DNA of 64,000 nt from Pseudanabaenaceae cyanobacterium SKYG29 (GTDB taxonomy: Bacteria > Cyanobacteriota > Cyanobacteriia > Pseudanabaenales > Pseudanabaenaceae). Position numbers and translations under genes: made by a program. Location of the stretch: contig JANWWT010000001.1 in the NCBI GenBank assembly GCA_025055675.1, positions 682,001-746,000 on the forward strand. The letters are read 5' to 3'. Numbering within the stretch: position 1 is the first letter of the stretch; the number at the start of each line of letters is the position of its first letter. Shown in pieces: positions 18,438 through 36,243 of this stretch. The notes under the pieces were generated by a model. That model ran no database searches and was not told where the DNA came from. It worked only from the letters and a program-made list of their open reading frames with translations.

Positions 18438-19007
18438 TTACCACAAAAATGACAGGGAGAGTGTAAATCCTGCTAAGACATCTTCCCCAGAAAGAGTGGG
18501 AGGAGCAGTAAGAATTTCAGGCGGTTTGTGGGGACGATAGATGGCTACTTTCTTTGTTTTGGGGTCAATCAACCACCCCAGCCGACAACCGTTATCCATG
18601 TATTCTTGCATCTTAGCTAGACCACCTTGCCAACTATCGGAAGGCGAAAGTAACTCTATCACAAAATCAGGGCAGAGAGGTAAGAATTTTTGTCGTTCTT
18701 CCGCAGTTAAATTATCCCACTTTTGTAGGGGAATCCAGGCAGCATTAGGGGAACGCACCGCTCCATTGGGGAGAATAAAACCAGCAGAAGAATCAAATAC
18801 TCTTCCTTGTTTCTTTGCCCGATTCCAGTTACCAAGGTCTATCACTATTTCAGCGTTCTGATTACTAGTTTCACCACCAGCGGGGGGCATGATAACTAAC
18901 TCTCCTGCCGCCGTCAATTCTAACCTCAAATCAGGATTAGCAGCACATAGTTTCTCAAACTCTGCTAGGGTTACCCTACCGATCGGTTCCAGATTTAACA
19001 CAGTCAT
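18438..19007 (-). CDS. Uma2-family (DUF820) nuclease-like protein, copy 1
   Basis: One of five tandem paralogues. Uma2 proteins have a PD-(D/E)XK restriction-nuclease-like fold and are greatly expanded in cyanobacteria; their cellular role is not established. The protein has MTVLNLEPIGRVTL at the start, MPPAGGETSNQN, the core CPDFVIELLSPSDSW with the catalytic-type Glu, the Lys in GGLAKMQEYMDNG and the closing WLIDPKTKKVAIYRP. The first catalytic acid, usually Asp in RSPD, is Asn here (RSPNAAW), so this copy may be inactive. ATG 19007 is 2 nt after the stop of copy 2; a GTG at 19016 is an alternative. Last gene of the array. Confidence 0.85.
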   Translation of the reverse strand: MTVLNLEPIGRVTLAEFEKLCAANPDLRLELTAAGELVIMPPAGGETSNQNAEIVIDLGNWNRAKKQGRVFDSSAGFILPNGAVRSPNAAWIPLQKWDNLTAEERQKFLPLCPDFVIELLSPSDSWQGGLAKMQEYMDNGCRLGWLIDPKTKKVAIYRPHKPPEILTAPPTLSGEDVLAGFTLSLSFLW

Positions 19008-19009
19008 AG

Positions 19010-19579
19010 TTACCACAGAAATGACAGAGAGAGAGTAAAGTTTTCCAGGACATCTTCCCCTGAGAGAGTGGCAGGAGCTGTGAGAATTTCAGGCGGTCTG
19101 TGGGGGCGATAGATAGCTACTTTCTTAGTTTGAGGGTCAATCAACCACCCCAGCCGACAGCCGTTATCCATGTATTCTTGCATCTTGATTAGACCAGCTT
19201 GCCAATTATCAGAAGGGGAAAGTAATTCCATGACAAAGTCGGGACAAAGGGGAAGAAATTTTTGTCGCTGTGTAGGAGTCAGGCTATTCCATTTTTCCAA
19301 AGTAACCCAAGCTAAATCAGGAGAACGTACAGCTTTATTTGGTAATATGAAACCAGCAGATGAATCAAAAGCTTTTCCCTTGCCAACACGTCGATTCCAC
19401 ATACCTAACTCTACACCAATTTCAAAATTTCTGTTGCTAGTCTCTCCACCAGCGGGGGGCATAACAATTAATTCTCCTGCCGCTGTCAATTCTAACCTCA
19501 AATCAGGATTAGCCTTACACAGTTTCTCAAACTCCGCCAGGGTTATTTTACCGATCGGTTCCAGATTTAACACAGTCAT
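19010..19579 (-). CDS. Uma2-family (DUF820) nuclease-like protein, copy 2
   Basis: Paralogue of copy 1 with all three expected PD-(D/E)XK-type positions present: Asp in RSPDLAW, Glu in CPDFVMELLSP and Lys in GLIKMQEYMDNG. The central segment (GVELGMWNRRVGKGK) differs most between the copies, while the first 40 and last 50 residues are nearly the same in all. ATG 19579 lies 2 nt after the stop of copy 3; the upstream GTG at 19588 would overlap it. Function unknown. Confidence 0.85.
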   Translation of the reverse strand: MTVLNLEPIGKITLAEFEKLCKANPDLRLELTAAGELIVMPPAGGETSNRNFEIGVELGMWNRRVGKGKAFDSSAGFILPNKAVRSPDLAWVTLEKWNSLTPTQRQKFLPLCPDFVMELLSPSDNWQAGLIKMQEYMDNGCRLGWLIDPQTKKVAIYRPHRPPEILTAPATLSGEDVLENFTLSLSFLW

Positions 19580-19581
19580 AG

Positions 19582-20151
19582 TTACCACAGAAATGATAGA
19601 GAGAGAGTAAAGTTTTCCAGGACATCTTCTCCAGAAAGAGTAGCGGGAGCAGTAAGAATTTCAGGTAGTCTGTGGGGGCGATAGATAGCTACTTTCTTAG
19701 TTTGAGGGTCGATCAACCAGCCCAGCCGACAGCCATTGTCCATGTATTCTTGCATCTTAGCTAAACCACTTTGCCAACTGTCAGAAGGGGAAAGCAGATC
19801 TATCACAAAATCAGGGCAGAGAGGTAAGAATTTTTGGCGCTCTTCAGTAGTCAAGCTGTCCCATTTTTGCAGAGGAACCCAAGCAGCATCGGGGGAACGC
19901 ACAGCTCCATTGGGAAGAACGAAACCAGCAGAAGAATCAAATACTTTCCCCCTCTGACTAGAGCGGTTCCAAATACTAATGTCCGTTACTATTTCGGCAT
20001 TCCGATTACTAGTTTCACCACCAGCGGGGGGCATAACAACTAACTCTCCCGTAGCCGTCAATTCTAACCTCAAATCAGGATTAGCCTTACACAGCTTCTC
20101 AAACTCTGCTAGGGTTACCTTACCGATCGGTTCCAAGTTTAATACAGTCAT
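19582..20151 (-). CDS. Uma2-family (DUF820) nuclease-like protein, copy 3
   Basis: Third paralogue. It keeps Asp (RSPDAAW) and Lys (GLAKMQEYMDNG) but has Asp in place of the usual Glu (CPDFVIDLLSP), a conservative change at the metal site. ATG 20151 overlaps the stop of copy 4 by 4 nt (ATGA), so these two are translationally coupled. The variable middle reads ISIWNRSSQRGK. Confidence 0.85.
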   Translation of the reverse strand: MTVLNLEPIGKVTLAEFEKLCKANPDLRLELTATGELVVMPPAGGETSNRNAEIVTDISIWNRSSQRGKVFDSSAGFVLPNGAVRSPDAAWVPLQKWDSLTTEERQKFLPLCPDFVIDLLSPSDSWQSGLAKMQEYMDNGCRLGWLIDPQTKKVAIYRPHRLPEILTAPATLSGEDVLENFTLSLSFLW

Positions 20152-20723
20152 AACTGCCACAGAAATGATAAAGAGAGAGTAAAGTTTTCCAGGACATCTT
20201 CCCCTGAGAGAGCAGCCGGAGCTGTGAGAATTTCAGGAGCTTTGTTAGAGCGATAAATTGCTACGCGTTGGCTTTCTGGGTCAATCAGCCACCCCAACCG
20301 ACAACCATTGTCCATGTATTCTTGCATCTTGGTTAGACCACTTTGCCAATCGTCAGAGGGAGATAGTAATTCTAGGACGAAATCCGGGCACAGGGGCAAG
20401 AATTTTTTGCGCTCCTCGGGAGTCAAACTGTTCCATCTTTCCATACTCACCCAAGCAGCATCGGGAGAACGCACTGCCCCATTAGGTAGTACAAATCCAG
20501 TGGAAGAATCAAATACCCTACCTTTGCCACTAACACGATTCCACAAAACTAAATCTGCATTTAACTCCGCATTATAGCTACCAGTTTCACCACCAGCGGG
20601 GGGCATAACAACTAACTCTCCCGTAGCCGTCAATTCTAACCTCAAATCAGGATTAGCCTTACACAGCTTCTCAAACTTTGCTAGGGTTACTTTACCGATC
20701 GGTTCCAGATTTAATACACTCAT
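20148..20723 (-). CDS. Uma2-family (DUF820) nuclease-like protein, copy 4
   Basis: Fourth paralogue, 191 residues, with Asp (RSPDAAW), Glu (CPDFVLELLSP) and Lys (GLTKMQEYMDNG) intact, so together with copy 2 it is the best candidate for an active enzyme. It ends with two extra residues (QL) because the stop seen in the other copies is changed and translation runs into the overlap with copy 3. ATG 20723 is 5 nt from the fossil stop of the broken copy 5. Confidence 0.85.
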   Translation of the reverse strand: MSVLNLEPIGKVTLAKFEKLCKANPDLRLELTATGELVVMPPAGGETGSYNAELNADLVLWNRVSGKGRVFDSSTGFVLPNGAVRSPDAAWVSMERWNSLTPEERKKFLPLCPDFVLELLSPSDDWQSGLTKMQEYMDNGCRLGWLIDPESQRVAIYRSNKAPEILTAPAALSGEDVLENFTLSLSFLWQL

Positions 20724-20728
20724 AGTTA

Positions 20729-21281
20729 CTACAGAAACGACAAAGATAGAGTAAAGTTTTCCAGGACATCTTCCCCTGAGAGAGCAGCCGGAGCTGTGAG
20801 AATTTCAGGAGCTTGGTTAGGACGATAAATTGCTACCCGTTTGCTTTCTGCCCAACCGACAACCATTGTCCATGTATTCTTGCATCTTGGTTAGACCACT
20901 TTGCCAATCGTCAGAGGGAGAAAGCAATTCCAAGAGGAAATCGGGACATAGGGGCAAGAATTTTTTGCGCTCCTCGGAAGTCAAACTGTTCCATCTTTCC
21001 ATACTCACCCAGGCAGCATTGGGAGAACGTACTGCCCCATTGGGTAGCAAAAATCCAGTGGAGGAGTCAAAAGCTTTTCCTTTGTCGTAGCAACGGTTCC
21101 ATACACCCAGTTCCACATTAATTGCAAAGTTTTTATTGCCAGTTTCGCCACCAGTGGGAGGGATAACAATTAATTCTCCTTGGGCTGTCATTTCTAAACG
21201 CAAATCAGGGTTAGCTGCACACAGTTTTTCAAAGTCAGCAAGAGTGAGTTTAGTAATAGGGCTGAGATTTAGTACGGTCAT
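20729..21281 (-). pseudogene. Uma2-family copy 5, frameshifted by a 14-bp deletion
   Basis: Nearest to ycf37. Comparison with copy 4 shows a 14-bp deletion at 20850/20851, inside the codons after CRLG. The frame then ends at 20817 with an unrelated tail (RKQTGSNLSS). Downstream of the deletion the old frame is still readable (ESKRVAIYRPNQAPEILTAP, then the NFTLSLSFL end) to a stop at 20729-20731, so the loss is recent. It also has Asn at the first catalytic position (RSPNAAW). The truncated protein of 154 residues would lack the last strand and helix. Its ATG overlaps the ycf37 stop by 4 nt. Confidence 0.88.
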
Positions 21282-31512: not shown

Positions 31513-32877
31513 CTAGACAAACCATTTGAGGAAATTGAGGTTAATTTTGTAGGGGGGATAGCGCCACTGTTGGTCAAACTTTAGGGATTTTTTGAGGATA
31601 CTTTTGTAGTGAGTGAAGGTGTCAAAGGTGTACTTGCCGTGGTATCTTCCCATGCCACTATCCCCGATACCCCCAAAAGGTAAATAAGGACTAGAAAGGT
31701 GCATGATTGTATCATTAATACAGCCACCGCCAAAGGGAATAGATTTGATGACTTCCTCCTGGAGCTTTTTATTGTCTGAGAAGAAATAGAGGGCAAGGGG
31801 ACGAGGACGGTCATTAATTTTCTTGATCACATCCGCCAAGTCAGTGTAGGTAAGTAGGGGCAGAATGGGACCAAAAATCTCCTCCTGCATCACAGGACTA
31901 TCCCAACTTACACCTGCAACAATTGTAGGGGCAATATAAAGATTTTCCCGATCGTGGTTTCCGCCCCACACTATCTGTCCTTCCCCTAGAAAATTAACCA
32001 ACCGCTGCCAATGCCGATCGTTGACAATGCGACCATAATCGGGACTTTGTTGGGGGTCATCACCATAAAATTCCCTGATGGCATCAATCAGAGCTGCCTT
32101 GAGTTGGTCATAAATATCAGCATGGACTAGGACATAGTCAGGGGCAATACAAGTCTGACCACAGTTAAAAAATTTCCCCCATGCTACCCGCCTTGCTGCC
32201 GTTTTAATATTGACAGCCCGATCGATAATACAAGGACTTTTACCCCCCAATTCCAATGTCACAGGTGTGAGGTGTTCTGCCGCTTTTGCCATGACAATCT
32301 TGCCCACCCTAGTACTGCCTGTGAAGAAAATATGGTCAAATTTCTGGGCCAATAATTCCTGACTGACTGTAGCGTCCCCCTCTACAACACTGATAAAAGC
32401 AGGATTGAAATTCTGCCGAAAAATCTGAGCAATCACTTGGGAGACATGGGGAGTAAACTCTGAGGGTTTAAGGACAGCACAATTGCCAGCAGCGATCGCA
32501 CCAATCAGGGGACTGACCAGTAACTGAAATGGGTAGTTCCAGGGAGCAATGATTAATACTACACCTAGTGGTTGGGGATAGACAAAACCCTTAGCAGGAA
32601 ATTGACCGAGAGAAATCTTAGCGGGTTGGGGTTTTACCCATTGCTTAAGATGTTTACAGACAAAATTGATTTCCTCCAGAAGAATGAGAATTTCACTAGC
32701 ATAGGCTTCAAATCTAGGCTTACCCAAATCTTTCTGGAGTGCGGCAATAATCACCTCCTGCTGCGTTTGGATCACTTGCTTTAGTAACTGCAGTTGTGCC
32801 AGACGATAATCTACAGCTAGAGTGGCATTAGTAGCAAAAAATTCCCTCTGCTTAGTAACAATATCTGCAATAGTCAT
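31513..32877 (-). CDS. Class 3-type aldehyde dehydrogenase
   Basis: A 454-residue NAD(P)-dependent aldehyde dehydrogenase close to the class 3 and fatty-aldehyde group. LGVVLIIAPWNYPFQL, VTLELGGKSPCII (catalytic Glu), GKFFNCGQTCIAPDYVL (catalytic Cys) and MQEEIFGPILPLL are in order. The C-terminus is hydrophobic (YPPYKINLNFLKWFV), as in membrane-associated fatty aldehyde dehydrogenases such as the cyanobacterial AldE; that function is a guess. ATG 32877 overlaps the idi stop by 4 nt (ATGA); a longer TTG start at 32916 would lie within idi. Confidence 0.9.
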   Translation of the reverse strand: MTIADIVTKQREFFATNATLAVDYRLAQLQLLKQVIQTQQEVIIAALQKDLGKPRFEAYASEILILLEEINFVCKHLKQWVKPQPAKISLGQFPAKGFVYPQPLGVVLIIAPWNYPFQLLVSPLIGAIAAGNCAVLKPSEFTPHVSQVIAQIFRQNFNPAFISVVEGDATVSQELLAQKFDHIFFTGSTRVGKIVMAKAAEHLTPVTLELGGKSPCIIDRAVNIKTAARRVAWGKFFNCGQTCIAPDYVLVHADIYDQLKAALIDAIREFYGDDPQQSPDYGRIVNDRHWQRLVNFLGEGQIVWGGNHDRENLYIAPTIVAGVSWDSPVMQEEIFGPILPLLTYTDLADVIKKINDRPRPLALYFFSDNKKLQEEVIKSIPFGGGCINDTIMHLSSPYLPFGGIGDSGMGRYHGKYTFDTFTHYKSILKKSLKFDQQWRYPPYKINLNFLKWFV

Positions 32878-33383
32878 AGGTAACTCAAAAACTGGGGATA
32901 ACACTGCCGTAGCCAATAGGTAAAGCGATCGGGGTAGTTCCTGATCTCCTCCTCTAATTTCTTAGCATCAATCCAGCGCCAAGCTACTACTTCTAAAGGG
33001 TTAACTTGAGGAACGCCTGCGAATTTCCCTAGCAGTACATGGTCATACTCATGCTCAATCAGTCCCCCATCCAGTTCTGCATAGTAAATGAAGCTAAATA
33101 ACTCCACCAACTCACAATCAAATCCCATCTCCTCCTGCAAACGCCGATGGGCAGCTTCCAACACCAACTCACCCGGACGGGGATGACTACAACAGGTATT
33201 TGTCCATAACCCCCCCGAATGATACTTATCCCATGCCCGTTGTTGCAAGAGAAGTTCTCCCTGGGGATTGACCACAAAAATAGAAAAAGCTCGGTGTAAT
33301 TGCCCCGATCGGTGTACTGCCAACTTTTCCCCCACACCGATTTCCCGATCGTGTTCATCTACCAAGATCAATAGTTCTGACAC
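32874..33383 (-). CDS. idi: Isopentenyl-diphosphate isomerase, type I
   Basis: Interconverts IPP and DMAPP. The Nudix-like fold is marked by LHRAFSIFVVNPQGELLLQQRA, the catalytic Cys in WTNTCCSHPRPGE, the Nudix-type helix EAAHRRLQEEMGFD and the catalytic Glu in EHEYDHVLLG. The length of 169 residues is normal. Most cyanobacteria are known to use the unrelated FMN-dependent type II enzyme, so a type I form here is less usual and may be acquired. GTG start at 33383; it lies 4 nt after the DNA methylase gene and overlaps the aldehyde dehydrogenase start. ispE and crtE in the same window act in the same pathway. Confidence 0.93.
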   Translation of the reverse strand: MSELLILVDEHDREIGVGEKLAVHRSGQLHRAFSIFVVNPQGELLLQQRAWDKYHSGGLWTNTCCSHPRPGELVLEAAHRRLQEEMGFDCELVELFSFIYYAELDGGLIEHEYDHVLLGKFAGVPQVNPLEVVAWRWIDAKKLEEEIRNYPDRFTYWLRQCYPQFLSYL

Positions 33384-33387
33384 TTCC

Positions 33388-34221
33388 TCACTCTAAACTT
33401 AGTTTTAGTTGCTGCACAGATTTTATAGGATAATTAGCAATAAAAATTTCCTGCCCATGTGGAGCAGTCGATCGTTTATAGTTGTTCATACCATATTGCA
33501 GACTCCAAGGAGAAATATTACACCATTGGTAGAGGCTGCGGATAAAGGGGCTATCATCATAGGTGAGCAACCAGTGATGACGTGTGGTAAGCAGCACTTG
33601 AGCCAGGCGGGGATGATCAAATTCAATATGAATCCTGCCTTGCCTGCCGTAAAGACGTGAATCGGCAGCAGAATAATAGGGGGGATCAAGGAATAGGAAA
33701 ACCTCCTCACCAGCAGCAACAACCACTGGTTCATAGTCCCCCCAGGTAATCTTTACTCCTTCTAAAAGAGGTGCTATTTTTCGCAACCGATCGATGGATG
33801 ACAATGTAAACCGTCCTTTGAATGCCTGTTCCGAGTAGCCTCCTGAGTCAACTGTCCCAGAAAAAGTAATTCTATTGAGTACAAAGAAACGTACTGCACG
33901 CTCAAATTCATCTCCCTGCCCATAGCGGTCTAACAGGTAATAAAAGAGGGATTTGCCGTTCTGTGTTTCCCAATATATTTGCTCAACAGCTGCAGCTAAG
34001 CGTTCACCATATCCTTGAAGAGTTTTCCAAAAGCAAAACAACTCGTAGTTAATATCGTTGATCCAGAATTTACAGTCAGGAAATTTTTGTCTGAGGGCAA
34101 TAAATATGGAGCCACCGCCAACCATTGGCTCACGGTATTCTTCGAAGGCTGGCACTAGGGGCAGTATTTGGGTGAGGGCGCGCGACTTACCGCCAGGGAA
34201 CCGCAAGGGACTTTTAAGCAT
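33388..34221 (-). CDS. D12-class N6-adenine DNA methyltransferase
   Basis: A 277-residue Dam/DpnM-type enzyme transferring methyl from SAM to adenine. The opening LRFPGGKSRAL and EYREPMVGGGSIF form the SAM site, and FLFLDPPYYS near residue 180 is the DPPY catalytic motif; LLTYDDSPFIRSLY follows. Dam-type enzymes recognise GATC, but D12 enzymes with other targets exist, so the target is open. The start overlaps by 8 nt the end of the gene pair that looks like its restriction partner, and idi follows after 4 nt. If the target is GATC it would modify every CGATCG site. Confidence 0.88.
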   Translation of the reverse strand: MLKSPLRFPGGKSRALTQILPLVPAFEEYREPMVGGGSIFIALRQKFPDCKFWINDINYELFCFWKTLQGYGERLAAAVEQIYWETQNGKSLFYYLLDRYGQGDEFERAVRFFVLNRITFSGTVDSGGYSEQAFKGRFTLSSIDRLRKIAPLLEGVKITWGDYEPVVVAAGEEVFLFLDPPYYSAADSRLYGRQGRIHIEFDHPRLAQVLLTTRHHWLLTYDDSPFIRSLYQWCNISPWSLQYGMNNYKRSTAPHGQEIFIANYPIKSVQQLKLSLE

Positions 34222-34900
34222 TAGTACCCTCCACTATACCCTTTATATTTAACAGGCGTAACTCTTCATTTAACCACATTAGTTTAGTAATAGATTTACT
34301 CCTCAAGCCAGCAGAGGAAGCAAAAGTTCTTATTACTGCATCATCATTAGGCAGAGTTAAGCTACCAGAAAATTTTCCCGTTAGTCTGAGACGGGCACAG
34401 TGAGTTAAACTCCTCTTTTCTATCTGCAACTCCTGTAACTGAGAGTAGAGTAGCAACTTAAAGAGACCATCTTTTATATCATCCCAAGCGAGAATATATG
34501 ACTTTGTCGTGTTTTTGCTTTCTTGAATTATAACCTCATCTCCGTTTCCAAAAATGATCTCATCAGCAGTTAAGTAATAAACTCCACGTGAGCAATCCCT
34601 TATTTCTAATAACCCCTTTGCCGTACCAGCTTGCACTTTTTCCAGATTGTGCTCTGTCCTCACTTCTCTTTCTGCCGCACTTGATGAGTCATCTGAGGAT
34701 TTTTTTGCGTATTTTTCTAAGTCCAATAACCAGGGTCTAGAATCGTCTTTCACATCCTCTAGGAACTGTTTGTGCGCTGTCTCACTGTGAAGAGTAACCC
34801 CCCGTTTTTTACTGATTGACTCATAACTTTTTAAGGCTCTATTGTAAATAGAGATGAAATTCCGCCTAAAGTGTTGTCGATTCCAACAGCGGGCATCCAT
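34214..34900 (-). CDS. Probable restriction endonuclease, C-terminal part after a frameshift
   Basis: A 228-residue frame continuing the N-terminal part at 34831-35352 in another frame. Reading with one extra A in the A7 tract (T7 on the plus strand, 34924-34930) joins both parts into a protein of about 380 residues, entering this frame upstream of its first ATG (KQIFSCEMDARCWNRQHFRRNF). Near residue 125, GDEVIIQESKNTTK has the D-x(n)-E-x-K form of PD-(D/E)XK nucleases. It sits directly before a DNA methylase, which supports a type II restriction role. I do not recognise the enzyme family. The end overlaps the methylase start by 8 nt. Confidence 0.65.
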   Translation of the reverse strand: MDARCWNRQHFRRNFISIYNRALKSYESISKKRGVTLHSETAHKQFLEDVKDDSRPWLLDLEKYAKKSSDDSSSAAEREVRTEHNLEKVQAGTAKGLLEIRDCSRGVYYLTADEIIFGNGDEVIIQESKNTTKSYILAWDDIKDGLFKLLLYSQLQELQIEKRSLTHCARLRLTGKFSGSLTLPNDDAVIRTFASSAGLRSKSITKLMWLNEELRLLNIKGIVEGTNA

Positions 34901-35352
34901 CTCGCAACTGAAAATTTGTTTAATTTTTTTCGGACATGGCTAACTTCCAATTTTTGGTTAGTCAGTCGCTTCCCATCCTTTTCTTTAGCTTCACTATACC
35001 ATGCTAATATTATGTAAATATTCATCGAGTTCATCCAGGAAAGGGTAGTATAATTAATTCGATCGAGATTGGTGTCACCACCTTCATCTTTAATAATGGG
35101 AATTACAGTAATTGTTTTCCCACTATGGGAATAGGTATTGTAAACTTTTGCTAGGGGATAAGTGCGGGTGCGTTTTGGTCCCCTCCACTTAGATAACGCA
35201 ATTTCTGCTCCTGAAGAAAATCTAATTTTACAGGCAGGTTTGGCTATATTTATGTGAAAATTATCCCAATCATATTCCACTAAGTTAGATAATTGCCCGC
35301 GGAAATGTAGAGCTTCAATCTTTGCTTTTAACCGTAATATAGGTCTTGCCAT
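34831..35352 (-). CDS. Probable restriction endonuclease, N-terminal part before a frameshift
   Basis: A 173-residue frame that carries conserved-looking sequence (KWRGPKRTRTYPLAKVYNTY, then ITVIPIIKDEGGDTNLDRIN) up to the A7 tract at 34924-34930. The last 33 residues after that tract are out of the original frame. Together with 34214-34900 it forms one gene. The base composition is more AT-rich than the genes on either side, and CGATCG motifs are sparse, which fits acquisition. The start is 3 nt after the end of the HdrB-like gene. Confidence 0.65.
   Translation of the reverse strand: MARPILRLKAKIEALHFRGQLSNLVEYDWDNFHINIAKPACKIRFSSGAEIALSKWRGPKRTRTYPLAKVYNTYSHSGKTITVIPIIKDEGGDTNLDRINYTTLSWMNSMNIYIILAWYSEAKEKDGKRLTNQKLEVSHVRKKLNKFSVARWMPAVGIDNTLGGISSLFTIEP
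34924..34930 (-). repeat. A7 homopolymer where the restriction gene changes frame
   Basis: Seven T on the plus strand (A7 in the coding strand). Adding one A restores one continuous frame across both gene parts. It may be a phase-variable tract, a true inactivation, or a sequencing error. Confidence 0.7.
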
Positions 35353-35355
35353 TTT

Positions 35356-36243
35356 TTAGTAGCTAGCAATTTTGTCTAATAAACTGTTTGTTGGTACTAC
35401 ATGACGGTCTAATCCTAAAACTTTAGGAGAGATACCCAAAGCTAGACCAATCAATTGCGGTAGGTGCAAAACAGGAATGCTCAGTTTTCTTCCTATAACT
35501 GCTTCCACTTCTGGTTGGCGGGAATCCAAATTAAGATGACAAAGAGGACAAGGAGTAACTAAACAATCTGCTCCTAGCTCGATCGCTTCTTGGAGATGCT
35601 TACCTGCCATCCGGAAGGAGGTTTGGGTGTCGTAACTAGATAGGGGAAAGCCACAGCATTGTATCCTACCATTGTAATAAATTGGTGTTGCTCCCACTGC
35701 CCTAAACACCTGCTCCAAACTCTCGGGATGATAGGGGTCATCAAATCTTTGTATTGTTTGCCCCCGCAACAAGTAACACCCATAAAAAGCCGCACATTTT
35801 AATCCTGTTAATGGTCGGATAATTTTATTAGTTAAACGATCGAGTCCATAATCCCTAATCATCACCCACAGGAAGTGTAAAACTTCGATCGTGCCTCGAT
35901 ATTCCATTCCCTGCTTGCCTAAAACTTGATTAACTTCTGCCCGCCGATCGGCATTATTTTGCAATTTTTCGTTGACTCTCCCAATTACACCTTGACAGGT
36001 ACTGCACTGAGTCATCAGCGGGAGATTGATTGCCTCAGCGAGGGCAATATTGCGAGCATTAATTGTATCTTCTAGGAGGGGATCGGATTCCCTAAATGTA
36101 CCAGCGCCACAACAACTGCCTTGGTCTAATTCTACTAATTCAATACCCAAAACTTGGGCAATAGCGGTGGTAGAAGCGTGTAATTCTCGACAAGCTCCCT
36201 TAGCTACACAGCCAGGATAGTAGGCGTATTTAAGTACCTTCAT
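35356..36243 (-). CDS. HdrB-like protein with two CCG domains
   Basis: A 295-residue protein of the heterodisulfide reductase subunit B family, with two cysteine-rich CCG domains: one with YYPGCVAKG, ELDQGSCCGAGTF and MTQCSTCQG, and one with CAAFYGCYLLRG, IQCCGFPLSSYD and VTPCPLCHLNLD. In methanogens such domains bind the [4Fe-4S] site that splits CoM-CoB disulfide; cyanobacteria have homologues without that substrate, possibly linked to succinate or other quinone-dependent dehydrogenases. The role here is open. The start overlaps the previous gene by 14 nt, and a restriction gene begins 3 nt after its stop. Confidence 0.85.
   Translation of the reverse strand: MKVLKYAYYPGCVAKGACRELHASTTAIAQVLGIELVELDQGSCCGAGTFRESDPLLEDTINARNIALAEAINLPLMTQCSTCQGVIGRVNEKLQNNADRRAEVNQVLGKQGMEYRGTIEVLHFLWVMIRDYGLDRLTNKIIRPLTGLKCAAFYGCYLLRGQTIQRFDDPYHPESLEQVFRAVGATPIYYNGRIQCCGFPLSSYDTQTSFRMAGKHLQEAIELGADCLVTPCPLCHLNLDSRQPEVEAVIGRKLSIPVLHLPQLIGLALGISPKVLGLDRHVVPTNSLLDKIASY

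What the first reader, a model, noticed from the sequence alone, without database searches (positions are those of the whole stretch)
34214..35352. Putative restriction gene broken, or switched, at an A7 tract
Two overlapping frames join perfectly if the A7 run at 34924-34930 had eight A. The joined protein has an E-x-K nuclease-like motif and sits before a DNA adenine methylase. Homopolymer-length switching of restriction genes is known in other bacteria.
Basis: partly seen in the sequence, partly recalled or inferred. Interest (0 to 1): 0.65.

Follow-up and report, generated by a model that had tools for sequence, protein, structure and literature searches.

The report
Decaying GGCC restriction gene, intact methylase
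This cyanobacterium carries a type II restriction gene that is broken by a one-base slip in a run of seven As, next to an intact partner DNA methylase; relatives suggest the gene is wearing out rather than being switched on and off, which is an ordinary fate for such genes.

Summary
Two overlapping minus-strand frames (34831-35352 and 34214-34900) are one type II restriction-endonuclease gene, broken at the A7 run at 34924-34930. Both halves match the same PADLOC REase_II model separately, and the joined reading matches it across the junction. Relatives, including one in the same genus and synteny, encode the protein in one uninterrupted frame.

The switch idea is not supported. No aligned homologue has an A7 at that place, A7 is no more than codon usage predicts, and the own copy carries nine radical changes at conserved positions while its methylase carries none. 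In the same genus one species has an open frame but lacks nine strongly conserved residues; in the other the locus is absent. In the sampled cyanobacteria the nuclease is broken in 8 of 21 genomes, at different sites; the methylase is nearly always intact.

The neighbour is D12 class; by literature relatives (M.CbeI, DmtB, M.Ssp6803II) more likely a GGCC N4-cytosine than an adenine methylase. GGCC is the most avoided 4-bp palindrome here (observed/expected 0.10).

Best reading: a recent loss-of-function allele of a GGCC restriction-modification pair, leaving the methylase effectively orphan. Ordinary. An assembly error at A7 cannot be excluded without reads.

The parts
34214..35352 (-). Type II restriction endonuclease gene, interrupted (379 aa if read across the break)
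   Evidence: REase_II PDLC03572, 1.7e-45 across the junction; uninterrupted syntenic orthologue L025:3113-4225
34831..35352 (-). Upstream frame: N-terminal part (about 142 native residues plus 31 out-of-frame residues), no E-x-K motif
   Evidence: PDLC03572 positions 2-148
34214..34900 (-). Downstream frame: C-terminal part with the conserved E-x-K (ESK) and the region with weak fold likeness to PD-(D/E)xK nucleases
   Evidence: PDLC03572 positions 153-303 and PDLC03474; structure comparison of relative L023
34924..34930 (-). A7 run at which the reading frame breaks (in phase A_AAA_AAA)
33388..34221 (-). Intact D12-class DNA methyltransferase, start overlapping the end of the restriction gene by 8 bases; probable GGCC N4-cytosine specificity (inferred)
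   Evidence: PF02086 8e-33; PADLOC MTase_II PDLC03247 2e-123; intact, 80% identical in G387
35356..36243 (-). HdrB-like cysteine-rich (CCG) protein, upstream neighbour; absent together with the R-M pair in sister species G386
   Evidence: PF02754; gap in G386 contig C49

Best explanation
The locus is a type II restriction-modification pair, most likely GGCC-specific and of the CbeI/SuaI kind, in which the nuclease gene has recently lost function. A one-base slip in an A7 run cuts off the C-terminal part that carries the conserved E-x-K motif, and other substitutions at conserved sites have accumulated. The methylase is kept intact under constraint and now acts as an orphan. Shown: the gene identity by profile, the frame break in the held assembly, uninterrupted relatives, extra damage, and an intact methylase. 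Inferred: the GGCC specificity, loss of activity, and that the slip is real and not a sequencing error.
For: Joined and separate halves match REase_II. A single open frame is present in the syntenic same-genus relative L025, in L023, and in ten more cyanobacterial copies. At columns where at most one other sequence deviates, the own nuclease deviates 12 times out of 100, 9 of them radical; its methylase deviates 4 times out of 108, none radical; Fisher P = 0.001. Changes unique to own versus unique to L025, polarised by L023, are 37:20 for the nuclease and 12:17 for the methylase (P = 0.04 between genes). In the same genus, G387 lacks nine strongly conserved residues (YPLAKVYNT block) in an otherwise open frame, and G386 has no copy. 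Over the cyanobacteria searched, the nuclease is uninterrupted in 11 genomes, has the in-frame deletion in 1, is broken in 8, and is unclear in 1 (contig ends), while the adjacent methylase is broken in only one (G392). It is the only single-copy gene with a frame break against 60 kb of syntenic G387. GGCC is the rarest 4-bp palindrome against expectation in the own genome sample, 47 seen and 476 expected. The family model rings in Sulfolobus acidocaldarius among the control genomes, whose only restriction system is GGCC-specific SuaI (PMC5809426).
Against: The downstream frame has no further stop in 228 codons, so the break is recent or the gene still has some use. Average dN/dS against G387 is 0.13, so the gene was under constraint for most of its history. 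Read support for A7 was not available. The decay statistics rest on a few changes and one outgroup; the 37:20 excess alone is P = 0.03. One distant but open copy (L002) deviates even more at conserved columns, so deviations do not prove loss of function. GGCC avoidance also occurs in relatives without this system (G346 0.02, G408 0.05), so it is weak evidence of specificity.
Confidence: 0.72

Rival explanations
1. Assembly or sequencing error at A7: the real gene is uninterrupted and working.
For: One homopolymer base is a classic error. Seven of the runs of 7 or more elsewhere lie inside intact orthologues, so errors are not general, but one error is possible. The downstream frame is open throughout.
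Against: No other single-copy frame break in the syntenic region. The nine radical changes at conserved positions do not depend on the A7.
Confidence: 0.15
2. Phase-variable switch: slipped-strand mispairing in the A7 turns restriction on and off while the methylase stays on.
For: A one-base change would join the frames. In two other genomes (G396, G187) the frame break also lies at an A7 run.
Against: The runs lie at different codons in each species and the uninterrupted relatives lack one at the own position. A7 is no more frequent than synonymous shuffles give (P = 0.36). The run is short. A switching gene should keep its conserved residues, but the own copy does not. By the published criteria for frame transitions (PMC3711429) it looks like a singleton or pseudogene, not a conserved switch.
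Confidence: 0.06
3. Programmed -1 ribosomal frameshift or transcriptional slippage on A_AAA_AAA makes some full-length enzyme.
For: The heptamer is in the right phase, and a downstream hairpin folds better than most shuffles (z = -2.5).
Against: The site is not conserved in any homologue. The hairpin starts 20 bases after the run, farther than in known bacterial sites (own knowledge). Phase fits by chance one time in three. Conserved residues are lost.
Confidence: 0.05
4. The two frames work as separate subunits of a split enzyme.
For: An ATG lies at the start of the downstream frame, inside the end of the upstream one.
Against: That methionine is already present inside uninterrupted relatives (KMDA in L023 and L025), the upstream product ends in 31 out-of-frame residues, and no homologue is organised this way at this position.
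Confidence: 0.02

Closest known systems
CbeI / M.CbeI of Caldicellulosiruptor bescii (GG^CC; PMC3425538)
   Same: Nuclease gene next to a D12-class methylase with DPPY motif; predicted GGCC specificity; D12 annotation as 'adenine-specific' that proved to be N4-cytosine
   Different: Here the nuclease is interrupted.
SuaI of Sulfolobus acidocaldarius (GGCC; PMC5809426)
   Same: The family model that fits this nuclease rings in the S. acidocaldarius genome, whose only restriction system is SuaI
   Different: M.SuaI is a beta-class methylase (PMC3425538), not D12; the locus that matched was not shown
M.Ssp6803II (sll0729) of Synechocystis and DmtB of Anabaena variabilis (GGm4CC; PMC6560206, PMC3425538)
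   Same: Cyanobacterial GGCC N4-cytosine methylases; M.CbeI and DmtB are 57% identical. The own methylase is 50-59% identical to homologues next to this nuclease in other cyanobacteria
   Different: The own methylase still has the remains of its nuclease.

Membership tests
Type II REase (PADLOC REase_II PDLC03572, CbeI/SuaI-like) | Full-length profile match | tested here: met
   1.7e-45 over residues 2-312 of the joined reading; both halves match separately
Type II REase (PADLOC REase_II PDLC03572, CbeI/SuaI-like) | Conserved E-x-K nuclease motif | tested here: met
   ESK identical in all 13 aligned sequences, but located after the break
Type II REase (PADLOC REase_II PDLC03572, CbeI/SuaI-like) | PD-(D/E)xK fold | tested here: inconclusive
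   Model of L023 (pLDDT 84.5): residues 235-382 align to NucS/EndoMS, SduA, McrC, MunI at Z 4.5-6.1; Foldseek found nothing at E <= 0.001
Type II REase (PADLOC REase_II PDLC03572, CbeI/SuaI-like) | Continuous coding frame | tested here: not met
   Broken at 34924-34930 as assembled; so it is a broken member, not a working one
Type II REase (PADLOC REase_II PDLC03572, CbeI/SuaI-like) | Cleaves GGCC | not testable with these tools
   Only indirect: GGCC avoidance, which is not specific to carriers
D12-class GGCC N4-cytosine methylase (M.CbeI/DmtB/M.Ssp6803II) | D12 domain with DPPY motif | tested here: met
   PF02086 8.4e-33; FLFLDPPYYS in the translation
D12-class GGCC N4-cytosine methylase (M.CbeI/DmtB/M.Ssp6803II) | Methylates GGm4CC | not testable with these tools
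   No methylome at hand
Phase-variable restriction gene (simple-repeat switch) | Repeat tract longer than expected and kept in relatives | tested here: not met
   P = 0.36 against synonymous shuffles; absent from relatives at this position
Phase-variable restriction gene (simple-repeat switch) | Mixed tract lengths in a population | not testable with these tools
   No reads
Programmed frameshift gene | Slippery site conserved between homologues | tested here: not met

The most novel reading that the evidence does not exclude
A-runs in this cyanobacterial nuclease family act as reversible on/off sites whose position moves between species (A7 breaks in own, G396 and G187), giving cells that keep GGCC methylation while restriction flickers.
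Probability: 0.05. Interest if true: 0.55.

Novelty: new member of a known kind. Interest (0 to 1): 0.18.

Why it matters
It is a snapshot of a restriction-modification pair turning into an orphan methylase. GGCC N4-cytosine methylases without a nuclease are common in cyanobacteria and can gain regulatory roles (Synechocystis M.Ssp6803II affects pigment synthesis, PMC11662147). The several broken nuclease copies next to intact methylases found here are an intermediate stage of that route. It also corrects a likely wrong 'adenine methylase' label.

Tried and rejected
PDB sequence search with the joined protein gave nothing useful, and Pfam and NCBIfam have no model for it. tblastn against plasmids found no match. 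GGCC avoidance was tried as a test of specificity: it fits, but relatives without this system avoid GGCC just as strongly, so it is only weak support. A HaeIII-type nuclease (PF09556) as another cause of avoidance in the own genome was not found. A-run enrichment as a sign of selection for switching was not seen. Conserved slippery site: rejected. Homologue search from the phylum of L023 was not possible. Foldseek gave no significant match; the second look gave only middling PD-(D/E)xK-type matches. The paper describing CbeI itself (PMC4269323) is not held. Supplementary record for L023 not held.

Full report
Setting. The window lies in a 2.56 Mb genome in 18 contigs, 97% complete. Kinship lists and the HIP1-like CGATCG frequency point to a cyanobacterium (inference). 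All genes of interest are on the minus strand: HdrB-like protein 35356-36243, restriction gene 34214-35352, methylase 33388-34221, then an NUDIX/isopentenyl-diphosphate-isomerase-like gene 32874-33383.

Check of the observation. The A7 run is at 34924-34930 as stated. The upstream frame ends 31 residues after it, and the downstream frame runs without a stop to 34214. Upstream, downstream and joined readings all hit the PADLOC type II restriction enzyme model PDLC03572, in consecutive profile ranges for the two halves. The alignment with uninterrupted relatives has no gap at the junction and places the change of frame at the A7.

Relatives. The same-genus species G387 has the gene in the same place between the same neighbours, as one frame of 370 aa, 64% identical. 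A metagenome-assembled bacterium, SKYG83 (L023), has a 382-aa copy, 55% identical, followed by the methylase (70%). Its other genes on the contig (Gfo/Idh/MocA, HEAT repeat proteins) do not resemble the window's neighbourhood, which suggests horizontal transfer (inference). Ten copies among 386 sampled genomes of the phylum, and G388 in the same family, are uninterrupted. The third genome of the genus, G386, lacks the HdrB-like gene, nuclease and methylase at this site; its flanking genes are 99 bases apart, and no copy of the methylase or nuclease was found elsewhere in it (the genome is 90% complete).

Decay. The nuclease evolves faster than its methylase (64% against 80% identity to G387), though dN/dS of 0.13 shows long constraint. 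At conserved columns the own copy has 12 changes, 9 radical, among them changes to the conserved NYLGG turn, a histidine to cysteine and a proline to leucine; the methylase has none that is radical (Fisher P = 0.001). With L023 as outgroup, own-specific changes outnumber G387-specific ones 37 to 20 in the nuclease but 12 to 17 in the methylase. The G387 copy lacks a nine-residue block (YPLAKVYNT region) that is otherwise strongly conserved, so it may be damaged as well. The in-frame broken copies in G396, G187 and G382 have frame breaks at A7, A7 and near an A6 run respectively, each at a different place; G308 and G385 have internal stops; G174 keeps only the first 94 residues directly before an intact methylase; G392 is broken more than once and its adjacent methylase too. 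G005 is split between contig ends and left unclear.

Is the A7 a switch? Runs of A7 in the own gene are as frequent as synonymous codon shuffles give (2 seen, 1.25 expected, P = 0.36). Uninterrupted relatives do not carry a run at this place. A gene kept for switching should keep its conserved residues. The frameshift classes of Antonov et al. (PMC3711429) use a conserved site for programmed shifts and a repeat plus earlier association for phase variation; neither condition is met here. Recurrent breaks at A-runs fit ordinary slippage hot spots. The phase A_AAA_AAA and a hairpin 20 bases downstream (z = -2.5) leave leaky frameshifting possible but unsupported.

Is it an error? Against 60 kb of syntenic G387 the nuclease is the only single-copy gene with a frame break, and seven runs of seven or more lie in intact orthologues. 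Errors are therefore not general in this assembly, but one cannot be excluded. The amino-acid damage does not depend on it.

Specificity. The methylase has the D12 domain and DPPY motif, which would be read as adenine-specific. M.CbeI was annotated in just that way and turned out to be a GGCC N4-cytosine methylase, similar to DmtB of Anabaena (PMC3425538); M.Ssp6803II of Synechocystis has the same specificity (PMC6560206). The nuclease model rings in S. acidocaldarius, the host of GGCC-specific SuaI (PMC5809426). GGCC is the most avoided palindrome in the own genome sample (0.10), in G387 (0.06) and in every nuclease carrier tested, but also in non-carriers G346 and G408. GGCC is therefore the likeliest site, not a shown one. 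The own genome has three further D12 methylases, two of them only about 22-25% identical to this one and the third with no detectable match.

Structure. The model of the L023 protein is good (pLDDT 84.5, pTM 0.85). Its C-terminal part (235-382), which holds the E-x-K, resembles PD-(D/E)xK nucleases only at middling Z (4.5-6.1). In the own gene this part lies wholly after the break, so the protein made from the upstream frame would lack the E-x-K motif.

Verdict. A recent loss-of-function allele of a GGCC-type restriction-modification pair is the best explanation; assembly error is the main rival; switching and programmed frameshifting are unlikely.

Noticed in passing
window 18438-21281: Tandem array of five Uma2 (PF05685, putative nuclease) genes about 572 bases apart on the minus strand; the fifth (20817-21281) has a frame break near 20855, not at a homopolymer. 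In G387 the array reaches the contig end.
   Followed up: partly
L025:3113-4225: The same-genus orthologue of the nuclease is one open frame but lacks a nine-residue block conserved in nearly all other copies; it may be inactive too.
   Followed up: partly
window 35356-36243 and L055:7296-7396: The HdrB-like gene is absent together with the R-M pair in G386, as if the three form one present-or-absent segment.
   Followed up: partly
whole window; loci L062-L101: GGCC and CCGG are strongly avoided in most sampled cyanobacteria of this family, with or without this system.
   Followed up: partly
L049:425-1291: In G392 the methylase next to the broken nuclease is broken as well, while a second intact copy lies on another contig (C108).
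   Followed up: no
L023:4001-6011: The closest relative of the R-M pair outside the genus is in a metagenome-assembled genome with unrelated neighbouring genes, suggesting transfer between distant bacteria.
   Followed up: no
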